This document shows positions 3,885 through 15,165 of a stretch of 15,839 bases of DNA, one piece after another. The notes under the pieces are model-generated. The model did not search any database and was not told where the DNA came from. It was given only the letters and a program-made list of their open reading frames with translations. Position numbers and translations under genes: made by a program. The DNA comes from Candidatus Berkelbacteria bacterium (GTDB taxonomy: Bacteria; Patescibacteriota; UBA1384; JAHJRZ01), in NCBI GenBank assembly GCA_026397195.1, contig JAPLVI010000071.1:1-15839 (forward strand), read 5' to 3'. Every line of letters starts with the position of its first letter. Position 1 is the first letter of the stretch.

Positions 3885-3955
3885 CAAATCCTAAACCCTA
3901 AACTCTAAATTCTAAACAAATTCAAAATATCAAAATTATAAATTCAAAAAAATAA
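3885..3955. repeat. Left arm of AT-rich inverted repeat (CTAAA words)
   Basis: The stretch is made of CCTAAA, CTCTAAA and TTCTAAA words followed by AAATTCAAAAT words. Read on the minus strand, 4481-4545 gives nearly the same succession, with ATAAATTCTAAACTC then TAAACAAAT. The two therefore form a long imperfect inverted repeat around the gene at 3974-4480. Confidence 0.6.
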
Positions 3956-3973
3956 ATAACAGAAAGGAATTTT

Positions 3974-4480
3974 ATGTCAGAACCAGGACCAGAGAGTCCG
4001 CGGGAGTCTTCTCCGGAGATGCTACTTAAAGAAAACGAGGAAGCATCTGAAGTTATGCGCAGATTGGGGTACGGATCGGCAGGGGTATCTCTTTGGGAAC
4101 AGAGGAGAAATTATGAAGGAAATTTAAAACCATGGTCTGGGAGAGAAGGGTTTCCTACTATCACCCCCAAAGGCTTAACAGAAACCGTTCAAAAACAACT
4201 AGAGGATATTAAGGGCAGTCAAAACTTACAAGAACTTCAGCACCATTTGGTTATCTTGAATGTGAATGAATTTAAACTTAGGATTTCTCCAACAAAAGAT
4301 GAATTTGCTGATCTTGTAAGCGATTGTTCTATTTGGGAGAAAAGAACTGATGATGTATTAAGCGGTGGAGACGAAGCAAAGGAAGAATATTTTTCAGCGC
4401 GCGATCAAGTCACGCAGGAAGCCACAGCAAAATACGAAGAATTAGCTAAAGATTTAGACGGAGAATTGGGACAAAAATAA
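3974..4480 (+). CDS. Hypothetical soluble protein between inverted repeats
   Basis: I do not recognise this 168-residue protein. The start ATG 3974 is supported by AAGGA at 3964-3968. The sequence is hydrophilic and acidic, with no signal peptide, membrane helix or cysteine motif. The N-terminus is rich in Pro, Ser and Glu (MSEPGPESPRESSPE), and the second half is predicted mostly helical, with charged stretches such as AKEEYFSARDQVTQEATAKYEELAKDLDGELG split by few hydrophobics. It lies between ftsK and the RodZ-like gene but is separated from both by AT-rich repeats that are mutual reverse complements, so it may be an inserted gene, not part of an operon. Composition and the SD site support translation; the function is unknown. 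Confidence 0.8.
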   Translation: MSEPGPESPRESSPEMLLKENEEASEVMRRLGYGSAGVSLWEQRRNYEGNLKPWSGREGFPTITPKGLTETVQKQLEDIKGSQNLQELQHHLVILNVNEFKLRISPTKDEFADLVSDCSIWEKRTDDVLSGGDEAKEEYFSARDQVTQEATAKYEELAKDLDGELGQK

Positions 4481-4567
4481 TTTTGACTTTTGGGTTTTGT
4501 GATTTAATATTTGTTTAGAGTTTAGAATTTATAATTTATGATTTGTTTGGTAATTGTAACTTGGTAA
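4481..4567. repeat. Right arm of AT-rich inverted repeat
   Basis: GTTTAGAGTTTAGAATTTA and the neighbouring words are the reverse complement of the CTAAA words at 3885-3955. The last part (4551-4575) also has a short direct repeat, GGTAATTG twice. No promoter or terminator stands out. Confidence 0.55.
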
Positions 4568-4585
4568 TTGGAATTTAGTTTATAT

Positions 4586-5260
4586 ATGCCTCCTTTTTTT
4601 ACCACTAAAAAAATCAAACCACCAAAGACTTTAGGGGGAATTTTGCGTGGAAGAAGAAAGAAATTCAAATTAAGCTTGCGCCAGATCGAGAAGGCGACTA
4701 AGATAAAAAAAGTTTACCTTCTGGCGCTTGAAGCGAACAATTGGAATGAGTTGCCTTCTGAAGTTTATATCGCTGGTTTTCTTAATACTTATTCAAAAAC
4801 CTTGAAACTTGACGCCAAAAAAATACACAAAGCCTTTAAGGATGAACATCAGGCCCACAAAAACATTCAGAGGCGTGTTATTGAAAATCCTAAAGAATTA
4901 AAAGTCAATCGAGTCTATCTGACGCCAAGAATGATTATTATTGGGATTGTTGTTATCATTGCCCTTGCCTTGGGTGGTTACCTTTGGTTCCAAGTGTCAG
5001 GTTTTGCAGCTGCTCCACAGTTAAAGATTTCTGAACCGGCAAGTCAAGAAGTAAAAACTACAGATGATAAAATTCAAATTTCCGGAACCACAGATACTGA
5101 TTCAAGTGTTACCCTTAATAATCAACCGATTCCAGTTAGCACTTCTGGACAATTTGAACAGAACGTAAGTTTATCCCGCGGAGTTAATGTTTTTGAAATT
5201 GTTTCAACCAATAATGTTGGCAAAAAAACAACTAAGATCTTGCAGGTGATGGTCGAATAA
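4586..5260 (+). CDS. RodZ-like membrane-anchored HTH protein with Ig-like C-terminus
   Basis: The 224-residue protein has the layout of RodZ-type proteins, which link the cell-shape cytoskeleton or DNA to the envelope. Residues 15-76 match the HTH_25 domain (LGGILRGRRKKFKLSLRQIE, then the LPSEVYIAGFLNTYSKTLKLD block that follows the HTH). A basic linker leads to one membrane helix at about 115-137. The outer part, 146-224, looks like a small beta-sandwich of the glucodextranase-B/bacterial Ig-like kind (SGTTDTDSSVTLNNQPIPV). I chose ATG 4586 because the alternative TTG at 4568 lies in repeat-like sequence. Neither has a clear SD. It lies just before recA. RodZ is the likely family, but no mreB is visible here, so a role in shape is inferred only. 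Confidence 0.85.
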   Translation: MPPFFTTKKIKPPKTLGGILRGRRKKFKLSLRQIEKATKIKKVYLLALEANNWNELPSEVYIAGFLNTYSKTLKLDAKKIHKAFKDEHQAHKNIQRRVIENPKELKVNRVYLTPRMIIIGIVVIIALALGGYLWFQVSGFAAAPQLKISEPASQEVKTTDDKIQISGTTDTDSSVTLNNQPIPVSTSGQFEQNVSLSRGVNVFEIVSTNNVGKKTTKILQVMVE

Positions 5261-5287
5261 TTTGAATAATAGATTTGATAAATAAAC

Positions 5288-11584: not shown

Positions 11585-11986
11585 ATGGAGATAAAAACGA
11601 GAATTGTAGCCATTATTGTTATAAAGGGAAAACTTTTAATGCTTAAAGGCAAAGGTTACAAAGAGTTGTGGACTCCTGGTGGTAAAATTAAACCAGGAGA
11701 AAGCGACGAAGATTGCTTGAGAAGAGAATTAGAAGAAGAGACAGGGACTGAACTTCTAAGTATGAAATTTTTCAAAAAATATTCGGCCAAATCCTTTTAC
11801 AGTGAACACATCACTAAGCAGAGAGTATATATTGTTTCTATAAAAGGAAGTAAGATAATACCTCAAGCAGAAATTGAGGATTTTATTTGGCTCTCAAGGA
11901 ATGATTTTGAAAAGGGCAACTATCCTATGATTCCCATCACTCAAAATAAAATTATCCCAGATTTGATCAAGGCTGGGATTTTTTAA
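11585..11986 (+). CDS. Nudix hydrolase
   Basis: Nudix enzymes cleave nucleoside diphosphates linked to another moiety, often clearing oxidised or surplus nucleotides. The 133-residue protein is one domain, and its Nudix box GX5EX7REUXEEXGU is complete: GKIKPGESDEDCLRRELEEE then TGT, at about residues 37-60. The N-terminal strand (TRIVAIIVIKGKLLMLKGKG) and the KELWTPGGK approach are typical of MutT-like members. The substrate cannot be read from the sequence. It begins nine bases after the pps stop with no SD, so it probably depends on coupling to pps. An intrinsic terminator stem lies within its last codons and its poly-T contributes the C-terminal Phe codon and the start of the stop, ending the pyk-pps-nudix operon. 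Confidence 0.92.
   Translation: MEIKTRIVAIIVIKGKLLMLKGKGYKELWTPGGKIKPGESDEDCLRRELEEETGTELLSMKFFKKYSAKSFYSEHITKQRVYIVSIKGSKIIPQAEIEDFIWLSRNDFEKGNYPMIPITQNKIIPDLIKAGIF
11954..11984 (+). terminator. Terminator inside the Nudix gene's 3' end
   Basis: ATCCCAG (11954-11960) pairs with CTGGGAT (11973-11979), loop of 12 bases, followed by a run of six T (11979-11984) that continues into the stop TAA. It fits an economical end of the pyk-pps-nudix transcript. Confidence 0.75.
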
Positions 11987-12009: not shown

Positions 12010-12038
12010 TTGTTGTTTTTTTTCTTTTGTGCCATAAT
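12010..12038 (+). promoter_or_regulatory. Possible promoter of the MazG-like gene
   Basis: TTGTTG (12010-12015), a 17-base T-rich spacer, and CATAAT (12033-12038) resemble a sigma70-type promoter. Transcription would begin around the SD AAGGAGGT (12046-12053), which is unusually close. The -35 lies in a TTG-repeat, so its exact position is uncertain. Confidence 0.45.
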
Positions 12039-12060
12039 CCTTACGAAGGAGGTCTTGCCC

Positions 12061-12795
12061 ATGGAGACAAGCGTTCCTCAGACACTATCTGGATGGTTGC
12101 AGTTCTTCTTCAGCGAATACGGCATGCGTAACCGACTTCGTCTAGGGGGCCCGCTTGAGAGAGTGGGGCTTCTGTCACTTGCGGCCAAGGACCTCCAAGA
12201 TGCCATCCGCAAGAGAAAGGTGCTTGAGCCAAGCATAATTGGCATCGCTCTGGCGCGGGTGGTCGCTCGGATCTTCTGCATCGCCGAGCACTACCTCGAC
12301 TTGCCGCTGGTTGAGTCGTTCGTCACCAAGTACATGAGCGGCGCCTGCAGCTACTGCGAGCAGAGGCCCTGTGCCTGCAGTGAGAGCCGCCGCAGCGAGC
12401 CAACCAAGGTGAAACTCACGAGCCAACCGGACTGCACCTTGGCAGAATGCTGCGCCGAACTGGAAACGAACTACGGAGAAGTCAACCGTGCTTCTGGCAT
12501 CGAGAATCTCGTCAACCGTCTTTTCAGTGAGACTGGCGAGATCTTGAGCTTGGTCATGGGCAGCTTGACTTCTGAGACGAGTAACCAGCAGCTCAAACTC
12601 GAGATCGCTGAAGAGCTCGCCGACGCCCTTGCCTGGTCCATCGCGATCGCTAACTTCATAGGGATGGATCTTCAGGCCGCACTTACCAGTTGGTTCTGGC
12701 CATATTGCCGAGTCTGCCACGCCAGTCCCTGTGAGTGTGGTCCGTTCAGCGTTCGGCTGGTCAACTGGGAGGCCTTCCAGGACACTGAGTCGTAG
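12061..12795 (+). CDS. Tandem MazG-like protein with two CxxC-x4-CxC zinc motifs
   Basis: The 244-residue product appears to be two repeats of an all-alpha MazG/NTP-pyrophosphohydrolase-like domain, each closed by the same putative zinc knuckle: Cys96, 99, 104, 106 and Cys216, 219, 224, 226 (C-x2-C-x4-C-x-C, identical spacing). The second repeat keeps the MazG metal-binding pattern ExxE (157-160) and ExxD (185-188). The first repeat has lost both acidic pairs and is probably structural. MazG-type enzymes hydrolyse (d)NTPs to monophosphates; activity here is inferred. The start ATG 12061 has an ideal SD, AAGGAGGT, at 12046-12053; the longer frame to 12007 would translate the promoter region. 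Base composition is clearly GC-rich (36 of 60 bases G or C in 12301-12360) against AT-rich neighbours, which suggests acquisition. Confidence 0.8.
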   Translation: METSVPQTLSGWLQFFFSEYGMRNRLRLGGPLERVGLLSLAAKDLQDAIRKRKVLEPSIIGIALARVVARIFCIAEHYLDLPLVESFVTKYMSGACSYCEQRPCACSESRRSEPTKVKLTSQPDCTLAECCAELETNYGEVNRASGIENLVNRLFSETGEILSLVMGSLTSETSNQQLKLEIAEELADALAWSIAIANFIGMDLQAALTSWFWPYCRVCHASPCECGPFSVRLVNWEAFQDTES

Positions 12796-12831
12796 TCGAG
12801 TGGTGATCGACGATTCCCTTGTGTACACTAT

Positions 12832-12841
12832 AAGGAGGTGA
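12832..12841 (+). other. Orphan Shine-Dalgarno-like sequence
   Basis: AAGGAGGTGA is a perfect anti-SD complement, but no start codon lies within a usable distance; the next, GTG 12860 and ATG 12870, are about 20 bases or more away and open into the terminator and the tRNA. It forms the first half of a block that is shared with the end of the second GC-rich unit. Confidence 0.5.
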
Positions 12842-12848
12842 ACTACCC

Positions 12849-12894
12849 GGCCCGCCTAGGTGTGCAACAATGCAATCTCGGAGGGCCTTTTTTT
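12849..12894 (+). terminator. Terminator of the first GC-rich unit
   Basis: GGCCCGCC (12849-12856) pairs with GGAGGGCC (12880-12887) with one G/A mismatch, followed by seven T (12888-12894). The loop holds a small TGCA/TGCA helix. Confidence 0.75.
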
Positions 12895-12895
12895 A

Positions 12896-12924
12896 TTGAT
12901 TTTCTCTTATTTTCAGGTTAAGAT
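12896..12924 (+). promoter_or_regulatory. Promoter of tRNA-Ser
   Basis: TTGATT (12896-12901), a 17-base spacer and TAAGAT (12919-12924) form a fair promoter whose start would fall near 12931, three bases before the mature tRNA end. Its first 15 bases match a T-rich repeat found beside the second GC-rich unit. Confidence 0.55.
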
Positions 12925-12933
12925 TATTGATGT

Positions 12934-13020
12934 GGTGGGGTCGCATAGTGGTCTAGTGCGCCTGTTTGGAGTACAGGTAGATCCGCAAGGGTCTCGCGAG
13001 TTCAAATCTCGCCCCCACCG
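12934..13020 (+). tRNA. tRNA-Ser (anticodon GGA)
   Basis: The full cloverleaf can be drawn. The acceptor is GGTGGGG (12934-12940) with CCCCACC (13013-13019) and discriminator G at 13020. The D arm is GCA/TGC. The anticodon stem CCTGT/ACAGG encloses the loop TTGGAGT with GGA at 12968-12970. A long variable arm, GATCC/GGGTC around GCAA, marks a class II tRNA, and the T arm is GCGAG-TTCAAAT-CTCGC. It reads UCC and UCU serine codons. CCA is not encoded. The long arm and anticodon make serine secure. A near-copy of its 3' end lies downstream at 13064-13080. Confidence 0.96.
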
Positions 13021-13033
13021 TTTTAGAAGGTCC

Positions 13034-13080
13034 TGCGCCAGAGGCGCACCCGCCTTGAGTGGGAAATCCCATCCCCACCG
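13034..13080. repeat. Palindromic element plus near-copy of the tRNA 3' end
   Basis: TGCGCC (13034-13039) and GGCGCA (13043-13048) pair around AGA, carrying the same CGCCAGAGGCG core as the element behind rnj. At 13064-13080 a 17-base stretch matches the tRNA 3' end (13004-13020) at 14 positions, including the final CCCCACCG. The copy lacks a proper T arm, so it is not a second tRNA end in use. No protein frame is credible here. Confidence 0.6.
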
Positions 13081-13150
13081 CCAGTTTTTTAGCTTTTGCC
13101 TATGATTGATCGCTAGTTATTTTTAAAATATATAGTATTAATCAACCAAC

Positions 13151-13810
13151 ATGATGAAAAAATTATTTATCTTCTTAGGACTGGCATTAACATTCTTAGT
13201 TCCATCGATAGTCTCGGCGGATATTCTTGAGCCGGGTATGAAAGAAATTGATTATTGTTTTCAGGTTGAAAACATCAAAGATTATTCTGAATATGTATTT
13301 TTATCCTATTTTCAAGAACCAGTAGGAGGACATAAAGTTATAAATCAGGGAGACTGCGTCAGTTTTTACAAATTTAGCAACCCGACTATTTATGCCATAA
13401 AAAAAGGTGATTTTAATGAGAATGAGATCGGTTCAACTGATGAACAGGAAAAAAATTATTTTCAAAATAATAAAAAATTAATTGCTTCCGGGCTTAGCAT
13501 TAAATCTATTGGTAGTGTTAAAGAAAATGATCCAAGACAAAAAGTTGTTGATGTTTATAAAATCGAATCGCTTGATAGCGCCTTATTAAAAATTTTCCCT
13601 CTAAAAGTAATATATACATATACCGATGGCACGTCCGAAGAAAAAATTTATCAATCACAGCCCAATAGTACCGAAACTCCAAAAAGACCAGAGCCATCGA
13701 AGAAAACTTTTCTGCCGTACTGGTTTAGTATAATTTGGTACATAGTTTTGCCATTGATAGCTCTCATCATAATAATAGCTATCTTAATATATCGACGAAC
13801 AAAGAAGTAG
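13151..13810 (+). CDS. Exported protein with C-terminal membrane anchor
   Basis: I do not recognise the family. The 219 residues begin with a classic signal peptide (MMKKLFIFLGLALTFLVPSI, likely cleaved after IVSA at residue 23). An outer domain of about 145 residues follows and has two conserved-looking Cys (CFQVEN, GDCVSFY) that could form a disulfide. A Pro/Ser/Lys-rich spacer leads to a C-terminal helix at about 190-214 with the basic tail YRRTKK. It should be a type I membrane protein with its domain outside. There is no SD; ATG 13151 and ATG 13154 are both possible. The next gene starts six bases after its stop and is all membrane, so the two probably act together. Composition is strongly AT-rich, like the host genome. 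Confidence 0.85.
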   Translation: MMKKLFIFLGLALTFLVPSIVSADILEPGMKEIDYCFQVENIKDYSEYVFLSYFQEPVGGHKVINQGDCVSFYKFSNPTIYAIKKGDFNENEIGSTDEQEKNYFQNNKKLIASGLSIKSIGSVKENDPRQKVVDVYKIESLDSALLKIFPLKVIYTYTDGTSEEKIYQSQPNSTETPKRPEPSKKTFLPYWFSIIWYIVLPLIALIIIIAILIYRRTKK

Positions 13811-13816
13811 ATTTTT

Positions 13817-14122
13817 ATGGTGCAGCAGTTTTTATTGTTAATTATCACAGTTATTATTGAATTTTTTATCCTGTGGCTTTTTATCAGAAAAAATCCATTA
13901 AGAATCTTTTTTTATGCCGCACTTATAAATTTATTCACCTTGCCAGTTGCCAGTTATCTATATCAGAATATCCTAAATAATTTTTTATTGATTGAACTAG
14001 GTGTTTTCCTTATTGAGTGGATTTTAATCATGGTCTTGTTTGAAATAAAATATTATCGAGCGCTGCTTCTATCATTTATCGCGAATTTCATTACCGCGGC
14101 AATAAGTTTGCTATTTAGATAA
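13817..14122 (+). CDS. Small multi-pass membrane protein, partner of 13151-13810
   Basis: The 101 residues form about four helices, at roughly 4-22, 28-48, 54-75 and 81-100, with short basic turns (RKNPLR, KYYR) on the inner side. Helix 2 has an Asn-x5-Pro pattern (INLFTLPVASYLYQN) and helix 3 carries an acidic pair spaced within the membrane (ELGVFLIEWILIMVLFE). Similar Asn/Thr/Pro and Glu patterns occur, as far as I recall, in small membrane proteins paired with exported partners in other bacteria, but I cannot name a family. It begins six bases after the anchored exported protein and has no SD, so translation is probably coupled. A joint envelope role is inferred from the pairing only. Confidence 0.8.
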   Translation: MVQQFLLLIITVIIEFFILWLFIRKNPLRIFFYAALINLFTLPVASYLYQNILNNFLLIELGVFLIEWILIMVLFEIKYYRALLLSFIANFITAAISLLFR

Positions 14123-14199
14123 TAAGAAATTGATGTCGGGTTTTGTCCCAAAGAAATGAAAGTTAAAAATAAATTCGAATTCAGGATCTAAAAAATAAA

Positions 14200-14218
14200 T
14201 TGATTTTTCTTTTATAAA
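14200..14218. repeat. T-rich direct repeat, left copy
   Basis: TTGATTTTTCTTTTATAAA matches 15147-15165 at 18 of 19 positions. The copies bracket the second GC-rich unit. A similar 15-base stretch (12896-12910) follows the first unit's terminator. The rest of the gap 14123-14254 is AT-rich with no gene that I can support. Confidence 0.55.
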
Positions 14219-14254
14219 TAAGCCATTAGCCTATTATTTCAACAGTACTGAAGT

Positions 14255-14282
14255 TATAATGATGTTACAGAACGGTCTGTAA
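14255..14282 (+). promoter_or_regulatory. Promoter -10 with operator-like palindrome
   Basis: TATAAT (14255-14260) is followed by a perfect inverted repeat, TTACAGA (14265-14271), ACGG, TCTGTAA (14276-14282), which covers the expected start of transcription. It could be a repressor operator, or a leader hairpin a few bases before the SD at 14290-14297. No clear -35 is present. Confidence 0.5.
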
Positions 14283-14305
14283 TCCACCGAAAGGGGGTGT
14301 GCCTT

Positions 14306-14998
14306 TTGGACATCTGTGGGAGTTGCTCGTCTTCTCCTCCACCTTTGATTGGGTCAGCTGGCCCAATCTTGGGCATCCTGGAGCGGCAGTCTGCCGGCTT
14401 AAGGTTGACGCTGGCAGCACTCGTCTTCGTAGATCCGTCAGAACTTACGCCTGAAGGGTTGCACCCTGGGCTTGAGTTCCTCGACTGGACCTCCGGCGTG
14501 CCGGGCGAGGTCCTTCGGCAGATGATCAACGAAGGCGATGTTGACAAGAGGACAGCTGAGCTCTTTCTTAACCTGATGATCTCGGTGTGGGCTGCCGGCC
14601 ATAGCTCTTCCCCAGGGCTCGTTGTGAGAAGGGAGAGTATTATGCCGGCGGAATTGAGGGAGGACGTTGCGATCTACTGTGTAGACCGTTTCAGTACGCT
14701 CCTCTCCCAACTCATCGAGGACTTGCCGGAGCGTATGGATGCGGCGACAAAGAGGCGCGCTCGCACTCGCTCCCTGCCATTGTTTCCGGGTGAAGTACCC
14801 CCGACAATCGACTGGCGGATGACAAAGGCTGGGAGTGCGAAGTGCCTCTTGATCTTGGGACGGGTGGCTCGCCTTCAACGCTATGCTGGAGTCTGGTTCG
14901 AGATCGAGTTGATGGGTCTAGAAGAATTACTGGGCACAACCCAGCGTCCGCTCCCAGAGCATCCCACGACACGACCACCCGCAGTGAAAACGAGATAA
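14306..14998 (+). CDS. Unrecognised GC-rich protein
   Basis: No family is recognised for this 230-residue frame. TTG 14306 is chosen as start because the SD AAAGGGGG (14290-14297) lies eight bases ahead; the in-frame GTG 14297 overlaps that SD. The N-terminus has a CxxC pair (DICGSCSSSPPP). The rest is predicted mostly helical and soluble, with stretches such as TAELFLNLMISVWAAGH, VDRFSTLLSQLIEDLPERM and AKCLLILGRVARLQRYAGVWFEIELMGLEELLG. There is no signal peptide. Base composition is GC-rich like the MazG-like gene at 12061 and unlike the flanking AT-rich genes, and leader and terminator regions resemble those of that gene. The last 20 residues look less natural, while another frame stays open with coding-like third positions to 15078, so a frameshift near 14930-14990 is possible. 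Confidence 0.65.
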   Translation: MDICGSCSSSPPPLIGSAGPILGILERQSAGLRLTLAALVFVDPSELTPEGLHPGLEFLDWTSGVPGEVLRQMINEGDVDKRTAELFLNLMISVWAAGHSSSPGLVVRRESIMPAELREDVAIYCVDRFSTLLSQLIEDLPERMDAATKRRARTRSLPLFPGEVPPTIDWRMTKAGSAKCLLILGRVARLQRYAGVWFEIELMGLEELLGTTQRPLPEHPTTRPPAVKTR

Positions 14999-15089
14999 CG
15001 GGTGACCCCGTCTTCCGGCAGGTTTGCCGCGACTTGGCGAAAGTCAGAGTAGGCCTCGTCGAGGCACGATCCCTGTAGGCTGCAGGCTG

Positions 15090-15134
15090 TTTGTTCCCAA
15101 CAAAGGGGTGGCTTACCCGCCATCCCCTTTTTTT
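15090..15134 (+). terminator. Terminator of the second GC-rich unit
   Basis: A small hairpin TTTGTT-CCC-AACAAA (15090-15104) runs into the main stem GGGGTGGC (15105-15112) with GCCATCCCC (15119-15127, one bulged T), followed by seven T (15128-15134). Confidence 0.78.
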
Positions 15135-15146
15135 ATGGTAAATAGT

Positions 15147-15165
15147 TTGATTTTTCTCTTATAAA
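15147..15165. repeat. T-rich direct repeat, right copy
   Basis: TTGATTTTTCTCTTATAAA differs from 14200-14218 at one base. Its TTGATT could also serve as a -35 with TAAATT (15170-15175) 17 bases on, giving a promoter for the gene at 15273; both readings are open. Confidence 0.5.

What the first reader, a model, noticed from the sequence alone, without database searches (positions are those of the whole stretch)
12013..15165. Two GC-rich one-gene units with related leaders and related ends in an AT-rich chromosome
Both units begin with TAATCC, two or three bases, CGAA(A)GG, a GGT and GCC around the SD (12035-12059 and 14280-14303). Both end with AAGG, GGTG, CT, ACCCG and CC in the same order right at the terminator (12832-12856 and 15103-15121). 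The proteins themselves are unrelated. Shared flanks around different GC-rich cargo, each with its own SD and terminator, suggest exchangeable gene cassettes from a common foreign source. No integrase or recombination site type that I know is visible.
Basis: partly seen in the sequence, partly recalled or inferred. Interest (0 to 1): 0.75.

Follow-up and report, generated by a model that had tools for sequence, protein, structure and literature searches.

The report
Two laterally moved GC-rich single genes
In a tiny AT-rich bacterium two unusually GC-rich genes, a nucleotide-cleaning type enzyme and an unknown protein, look like separately acquired single genes, while the flanking sequences they were said to share are no more alike than chance.

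Summary
The window lies in a Patescibacteria metagenome bin (G000, 842 kb). Both GC-rich one-gene units are real: unit 1 is a MazG-type NTP pyrophosphohydrolase by sequence, unit 2 a protein of no known family. Their codon use departs from the host's (16th and 19th worst of 216 ORFs). The claimed leader and end similarity is not above background: 5-15% of random Shine-Dalgarno leader pairs, and 32% of random GC-rich segment pairs, score as high. Mobility is supported by other evidence. The same-genus genome G001 lacks both genes and has PPS directly before tRNA-Ser, without NUDIX and unit 1. Unit 2 recurs (81% protein identity, dN/dS about 0.25-0.29) at an unrelated place in a genome of another family, with unrelated leader and trailer, so flanks do not travel with the cargo. 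Best reading: separate single-gene lateral transfers into intergenic slots, a kind already reported for Patescibacteria. In G000 such GC-rich stretches run to the terminator T-run and stop there. A covarying two-hairpin element, absent from this window, follows a GC-rich stretch and T-run at 9 of 9 strong copies examined in G000 and G001; that by-product is the more surprising result.

The parts
11585..11986 (+). NUDIX hydrolase gene of host-like composition, inserted together with or before unit 1
   Evidence: Pfam NUDIX E 1.3e-15; absent from the matching G001 interval
12010..12038 (+).
   Evidence: read directly; not listed by the consensus scan
12046..12052 (+). Shine-Dalgarno AAGGAGG of unit 1
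   Evidence: read directly
12061..12795 (+). Unit 1: MazG-type NTP pyrophosphohydrolase with two CxxCx4CxC motifs, GC3 0.71
   Evidence: Pfam MazG E 0.0013, below cut-off; family profile against 1vmg 4.3e-12; conserved residues
12796..12894 (+). 3' UTR and terminator of unit 1; T-run 12888-12894; homology to G001 resumes at 12907
12933..13021 (+). tRNA-Ser (GGA), right neighbour of the unit 1 insertion
14193..14218 (+). Left copy of the 26-nt imperfect direct repeat around unit 2
14255..14260 (+). Likely -10 box TATAAT of unit 2
   Evidence: read directly; also scored
14290..14297 (+). Shine-Dalgarno run AAAGGGGG of unit 2
   Evidence: read directly
14306..14998 (+). Unit 2: protein of unknown family; TTG start preferred over GTG 14297, which overlaps the Shine-Dalgarno run
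   Evidence: homologue in G032; dN/dS
14999..15134 (+). GC-rich 3' UTR and terminator of unit 2; T-run 15128-15134
15140..15165 (+). Right copy of the 26-nt imperfect direct repeat around unit 2

Best explanation
The two units are independent lateral acquisitions: single GC-rich genes, each a complete transcription unit, that entered intergenic slots of an AT-rich Patescibacteria chromosome. Unit 1, with the AT-rich NUDIX gene before it, lies in the variable spacer between the PPS gene and tRNA-Ser. Unit 2 lies downstream of the 13817-14122 gene, perhaps with a 26-nt imperfect direct repeat as its insertion scar. Shown here: deviant composition and codon use, no match in the congener, an interval without NUDIX and unit 1 in the congener, unit 2 at an unrelated locus in another family, purifying selection on unit 2. 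Inferred: gain rather than loss; a route of DNA uptake and illegitimate or short-homology joining; trimming of each insert to promoter-to-terminator by selection or deletion; other Patescibacteria as the immediate donors. Likely role of unit 1: hydrolysis of surplus or non-canonical NTPs (from family). Role of unit 2: not known; a conserved soluble protein is my guess. The likeness of leaders and ends is convergence on a Shine-Dalgarno sequence and on a GC-rich stem with T-run.
For: Both absent from G001; unit 1 in 13 of 99 and unit 2 in 2 of 288 genomes, own included. G001 PPS is followed at once by tRNA-Ser, and homology resumes 12 nt after the T-run of unit 1. In 29 PPS loci read (G001 and 28 others) tRNA-Ser follows within 1.5 kb in 10, NUDIX or unit 1 in none. 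Unit 2 and its G032 relative match over 580 nt only, 84% nt, with unrelated surroundings; 80.6% aa is the highest of 33 ORF matches, median 37.2%. dN 0.14, dS 0.49-0.56. Codon and GC3 deviation. Leaders and ends within background. Single-gene transfers in Patescibacteria are in print (PMC12455944: abstract and passages seen).
Against: The exact leader pattern is found only at these two sites and the picked end blocks are at the 0.1% level. Gain is not proved by a tree; loss in G001 is possible. Synteny right of unit 2 is lost, so its right border rests on the direct repeat alone, and 56 of 57 tested islands show no such repeat at p < 0.05. No donor was found. The G032 ORF matches are best hits, not tested orthologues. 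The stop of GC-richness at the T-run is not explained by simple transfer.
Confidence: 0.75

Rival explanations
1. True cassette system: the leader and end blocks are recognition sequences by which a recombinase swaps GC-rich genes.
For: Exact leader pattern twice in the bin, both at these units; picked end blocks at 0.1%; other GC-rich units of the bin do share 3' elements across unlike cargo.
Against: Leader and whole-3'-UTR similarity at background; leader and trailer of unit 2 not conserved with its G032 relative; the shared 3' hairpin of other units is not in this window (best score in the units' region 8.6 bits, E 1.6).
Confidence: 0.08
2. Old residents: both genes were in the genus ancestor, kept a high GC for reasons of their own, and were lost from G001.
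For: Only one congener was available; unit 1 relatives occur across the phylum.
Against: Codon use deviates strongly; neither NUDIX nor unit 1 beside PPS in 29 loci; unit 2 found in 1 other genome of 287, far more alike than other ORFs.
Confidence: 0.1
3. The GC-rich stretches are reverse-transcribed mRNAs inserted behind host promoters, which would explain why they span transcript start to T-run.
For: GC-rich 3' UTRs that end at the T-run; -10-like hexamer near the 5' GC border in 8 of 18 units, random mean 3.4, sd 1.6; reverse transcriptase matches in G000 and G001.
Against: No reverse transcriptase match in G032, which also has GC-rich genes; the direct repeat of unit 2, if a scar, would enclose its promoter; trimming by selection predicts much the same borders.
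Confidence: 0.03
4. Assembly or binning chimera: GC-rich fragments of other organisms joined into the contig.
For: The bin is fragmented (183 contigs); some GC-rich stretches lie at contig ends.
Against: Both units are internal, between AT-rich host genes; G001 has an internal GC-rich unit between flanks that are orthologous to a G000 interval; G032 has internal ones on long contigs.
Confidence: 0.03

Closest known systems
Individually transferred genes in Patescibacteria (Gios et al. 2025, PMC12455944; abstract and passages seen)
   Same: Single genes moved laterally into reduced Patescibacteria genomes, most of them between Patescibacteria according to that abstract
   Different: Here the inserts are GC-rich outliers, and in G000 the composition stops at the terminator T-run; no passage on that was seen in the parts read
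MazG / all-alpha NTP pyrophosphohydrolases (Pfam PF03819; PDB 1vmg and others)
   Same: Unit 1 family profile matches over residues about 110-206; ExxE and ExxD residues invariant in 36 sequences
   Different: Single-sequence Pfam score below cut-off (19.4 against 22); extra N-terminal part and two CxxCx4CxC motifs
Integron gene cassettes (recalled)
   Same: Single genes with their own end structures
   Different: No attC-type site recognised in the window, no array here; each unit has its own promoter
REP/BIME elements with REP-associated tyrosine transposases (PMC2817692, PMC3116915: search listing and start of abstract only), for the by-product hairpin
   Same: Dispersed imperfect palindromes; 6 of 8 genomes searched carry Y1 transposase matches
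   Different: About 106 nt with two hairpins and 1-17 matches per genome; G000 itself has no Y1 match; absent from this window

Membership tests
Laterally transferred single gene | Composition and codon use unlike the host | tested here: met
   GC3 0.71 and 0.64 against 0.39, sd 0.13; 16th and 19th worst of 216
Laterally transferred single gene | Patchy presence, absent from close relatives | tested here: met
   no match in G001; unit 1 in 13 of 99, unit 2 in 2 of 288 genomes, own included; one congener only
Laterally transferred single gene | Gene tree in conflict with the species tree | not tested
   no tree was made; identity outlier for unit 2 only
Laterally transferred single gene | Empty site in a relative | tested here: inconclusive
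   unit 1: G001 interval without NUDIX and unit 1, direction inferred; unit 2: synteny lost after 14135
Site-specific gene cassette (integron-like) | Conserved recombination site beside unlike cargo | tested here: not met
   leaders and ends at background; shared hairpin absent from the window
Site-specific gene cassette (integron-like) | Dedicated integrase | tested here: inconclusive
   one PF00589 match in G000, far from the window on C9; not classified
MazG-type NTP pyrophosphohydrolase (unit 1) | MazG domain by profile | tested here: met
   36-member profile against 1vmg E 4.3e-12; single sequence below the Pfam cut-off
MazG-type NTP pyrophosphohydrolase (unit 1) | Acidic metal-binding motif ExxE ... 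ExxD | tested here: met
   E157, E160, E185, D188 invariant among 36 sequences; that these are the metal ligands is recalled
MazG-type NTP pyrophosphohydrolase (unit 1) | NTP pyrophosphohydrolase activity | not testable with these tools
   needs an enzyme assay

The most novel reading that the evidence does not exclude
These AT-rich Patescibacteria carry a standing population of transcript-bounded GC-rich genes (27 of 276 ORFs of at least 100 aa in the read part of G000), exchanged as promoter-to-T-run units. In this genus a covarying two-hairpin element, possibly worked by Y1 transposases, sits right behind GC-rich terminators and helps to move or stabilise such units; the window's two units are hairpin-free members of that population.
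Probability: 0.15. Interest if true: 0.75.

Novelty: new variant of a known kind. Interest (0 to 1): 0.42.

Why it matters
It shows at single-gene scale how a very reduced genome keeps gaining genes, and it raises a testable question: why the foreign composition runs through the noncoding 3' UTR and stops at the terminator T-run. The hairpin element found on the way has strong covariation, no Rfam match in the loci scanned, and a place behind GC-rich terminators in this genus.

Tried and rejected
Shared leader and end blocks: not above background. Direct repeats as a general insertion scar: 1 of 57 islands at p < 0.05. The repeat as a dispersed site: two exact matches in 842 kb, both around unit 2, plus one 1-mismatch and one 2-mismatch hit on other contigs, reversed control 2; the 1-mismatch place was read and looks coding to me, the other was not read in print. 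Reverse transcription: disfavoured. Phage or plasmid source: unit 2 had no relative in the viral contigs (patterns of a single protein, close relatives only) or plasmids searched; unit 1 had three remote relatives at 24-25% identity in viral contigs, not followed up, and was not searched in plasmids. Literature: two searches for GC-rich or horizontally acquired genes in Patescibacteria/CPR, one for reverse-transcribed gene copies, one for RAYT in Patescibacteria that gave unrelated papers, one for RAYT in general; I make no claim that the pattern is not in print.

Limits: 390,622 of 842,208 bases of G000 (84 of 183 contigs), 159,145 bases of G001 and 325,674 bases of G032 were read for the statistics. 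Some GC islands look like rRNA or tRNA clusters (my reading), and some selected ORFs may be on the wrong strand. ORFs are mechanical calls. PPS loci: 30 returned (own plus 29) of 50 genomes with a match; two of the 29 downstream stretches were shorter than 1.5 kb.
Full report
SETTING. The window is contig C61 (15,839 nt) of G000, an 842-kb bin of 183 contigs, 79.5% complete. Windows of 500 nt run at 0.28-0.49 GC outside the two units; the units reach 0.55 and 0.54.

THE TWO GENES. Unit 1 (12061-12795) matches Pfam MazG below the cut-off (E 0.0013). The profile of its family (36 sequences, own included) matches solved MazG-type proteins (1vmg, E 4.3e-12, then weaker ones). E157, E160, E185, D188 and the four cysteines of the first CxxCx4CxC motif are invariant, and three of the four cysteines of the second motif nearly so. 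Of the homologues few bear an organism name; those are Patescibacteria or 'bacterium' bins. GTG 14297 overlaps the Shine-Dalgarno run, so TTG 14306 is the better start (read).

ARE THE FLANKS RELATED? I compared the pair with backgrounds from the same genome. Leaders: the strict local score consists of the six letters TAATCC and is reached by 71.7% of 13,695 pairs of SD leaders. Ends: the picked blocks are at the 0.1% level, but they were picked; the full 3' UTRs give 32%. The two TAATCC blocks differ in place relative to the likely -10 boxes, which are my reading; the consensus scan lists neither. Against me stands: the exact leader pattern occurs only at these two sites. As the pattern was written from them, I give it little weight.

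ARE THE GENES MOBILE? G001, of the same genus, has neither protein. Its contig C44 shows PPS, then tRNA-Ser, then another ORF, then the 13151/13817 gene pair at 91% nt identity. In the window this order is broken by NUDIX plus unit 1, and homology resumes at 12907, 12 nt after the T-run of unit 1. In 29 PPS loci (G001 and 28 more distant relatives) tRNA-Ser follows within 1.5 kb in 10 (9 GGA, 1 GCT), starting 26 to 1,299 nt after the PPS match; NUDIX or unit 1 was found in none. The nine spacers examined outside G001 hold different small ORFs or none. Unit 2 recurs in G032, of another family: the match covers 580 nt inside the gene (84% nt), from codon 29 of the longest frame to 12 codons before the stop, and leader, trailer and neighbours do not match. 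At 80.6% it is the most alike of 33 ORF matches between the read parts of the two bins, median 37.2%, next 68.0%. Differences fall 30, 24, 66 on codon positions 1, 2, 3, and dN/dS is 0.25 (NG86) to 0.29 (YN00). A 26-nt direct repeat (23 of 26) flanks unit 2; 1 of 5,981 random AT-rich pairs does as well, but among 57 islands unit 2 is the only one with such a repeat at p < 0.05.

THE WIDER PATTERN. In the read part of G000, 36 stretches of at least 500 nt reach GC 0.50; some look like rRNA or tRNA clusters. Of ORFs of at least 100 aa, 27 of 276 have GC3 above 0.62 in G000, 4 of 141 in G001, and 25 of 296 above 0.66 in G032. Of 30 GC-rich proteins chosen from the three genomes, 11 had a Pfam match at E 0.01 or better, two of them below the curated cut-off; the families include PurH, carbamoyltransferase, xylose-isomerase-like TIM barrels, DUF1559/N-methylation prepilins, M23 peptidase, methyltransferase and cupin. 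In the 13 G000 units with a detected terminator the noncoding 3' UTR has GC 0.57 (925 nt), the 50 nt after the T-run 0.34; in native units (30 with a terminator) the 3' UTR has 0.36. G001 gave only 2 units (0.57, then 0.35). G032 gave 2 with no drop (0.48, then 0.47), so the pattern is shown for G000 only. The 5' border is less clear: 8 of 18 units have a -10-like hexamer within 25 nt; random mean 3.4, sd 1.6, and the largest of 300 random sets also reached 8. One G001 spacer holds a GC-rich unit that the matching G000 spacer lacks, and one flank gene has different GC-rich neighbours in the two genomes.

BY-PRODUCT. Four G000 GC-rich units with unlike cargo share an element of about 106 nt right after the T-run, without an Rfam match in the loci scanned. 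A model from these four finds it in 18 of 80 genomes, own included (11 matches in G000, 17 in G003, 14 in G030), and in none of the 25 genomes outside the class; the weakest matches may be ordinary hairpins. On 35 aligned matches 94.2% of cells pair and 305 cells change on both sides (shuffled mean 84.8; slid structures at most 63), though the alignment was fitted to the model. All nine strong copies examined (seven in G000, two in G001) follow a T-run and a stretch of raised GC; in one (C161) no GC-rich ORF was found just upstream, and one (G001 C78) has only 0.49 over 600 nt. Four weaker matches in G000 and two in G001 were not examined. In other genomes it occurs on either strand, in several loci close to a possible gene start. 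Y1 transposase matches number 10, 8, 5, 4, 2, 3, 0, 0 in G030, G021, G003, G016, G009, G001, G000, G032, where element matches number 14, 8, 17, 12, 8, 4, 11, 1; G000, with 11 and no Y1 match, does not fit. In G016 two matches lie 261 and 544 nt from a Y1 match. This suggests, but does not show, a REP-like element. The window does not contain it.

CONCLUSION. Two separate single-gene lateral acquisitions, not a matched pair of cassettes. The GC-rich self-contained units stand and belong to a genome-wide pattern; the related leaders and ends do not stand above chance.

Noticed in passing
L068:541-647, L068:1976-2080, L134:1504-1610, L117:10645-10749 (-); also G000 C161, C87, C177 and G001 C62, C78: Two-hairpin element of about 106 nt with strong covariation, right behind the T-run of GC-rich stretches; matches in 18 of 80 relatives, no Rfam match in the loci scanned.
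   Followed up: partly
window 13004-13020 and 13064-13080: Second copy of the tRNA-Ser 3' end 60 nt downstream of the first; its 17 nt equal the 3' end of the G001 tRNA-Ser, while the window's own tRNA differs at 3 of 17, as after integration and loss of an element in the tRNA gene (interpretation inferred).
   Followed up: partly
L118:1715-1788, L164:1132-1199, L137:6777-6848 (G000): Related terminator hairpins behind GC-rich units with unlike cargo (75-76% identity in pairs).
   Followed up: partly
L118:1-2725 (G000) and L098:1-950 (G001): GC-rich prepilin-like genes with N-methylation/DUF1559 match at the same locus, three in G000 and at least one in G001.
   Followed up: partly
L098:2343-3716 and 3902-5264 (G001 C15): Two AT-rich inserts of about 1.37 kb inside a gene that is uninterrupted in G000 L118; they look like inteins in an FtsH-like gene (from recall, no family search).
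   Followed up: no
L118:3825-4031: Group I intron match (RF00028, 61.6 bits against a gathering score of 50), with a tRNA at 4296-4367.
   Followed up: no
L015:1501-1944 = G000:C100:3627-4070 (-): A second, remote relative of unit 1 in the same bin, 24% identity, one stop inside the matched stretch.
   Followed up: no
L139:2552-2664 (G000) and L087:2779-3620 (G001): Matching intergenic spacer with a GC-rich unit in G001 and an unrelated short GC-rich hairpin in G000.
   Followed up: partly
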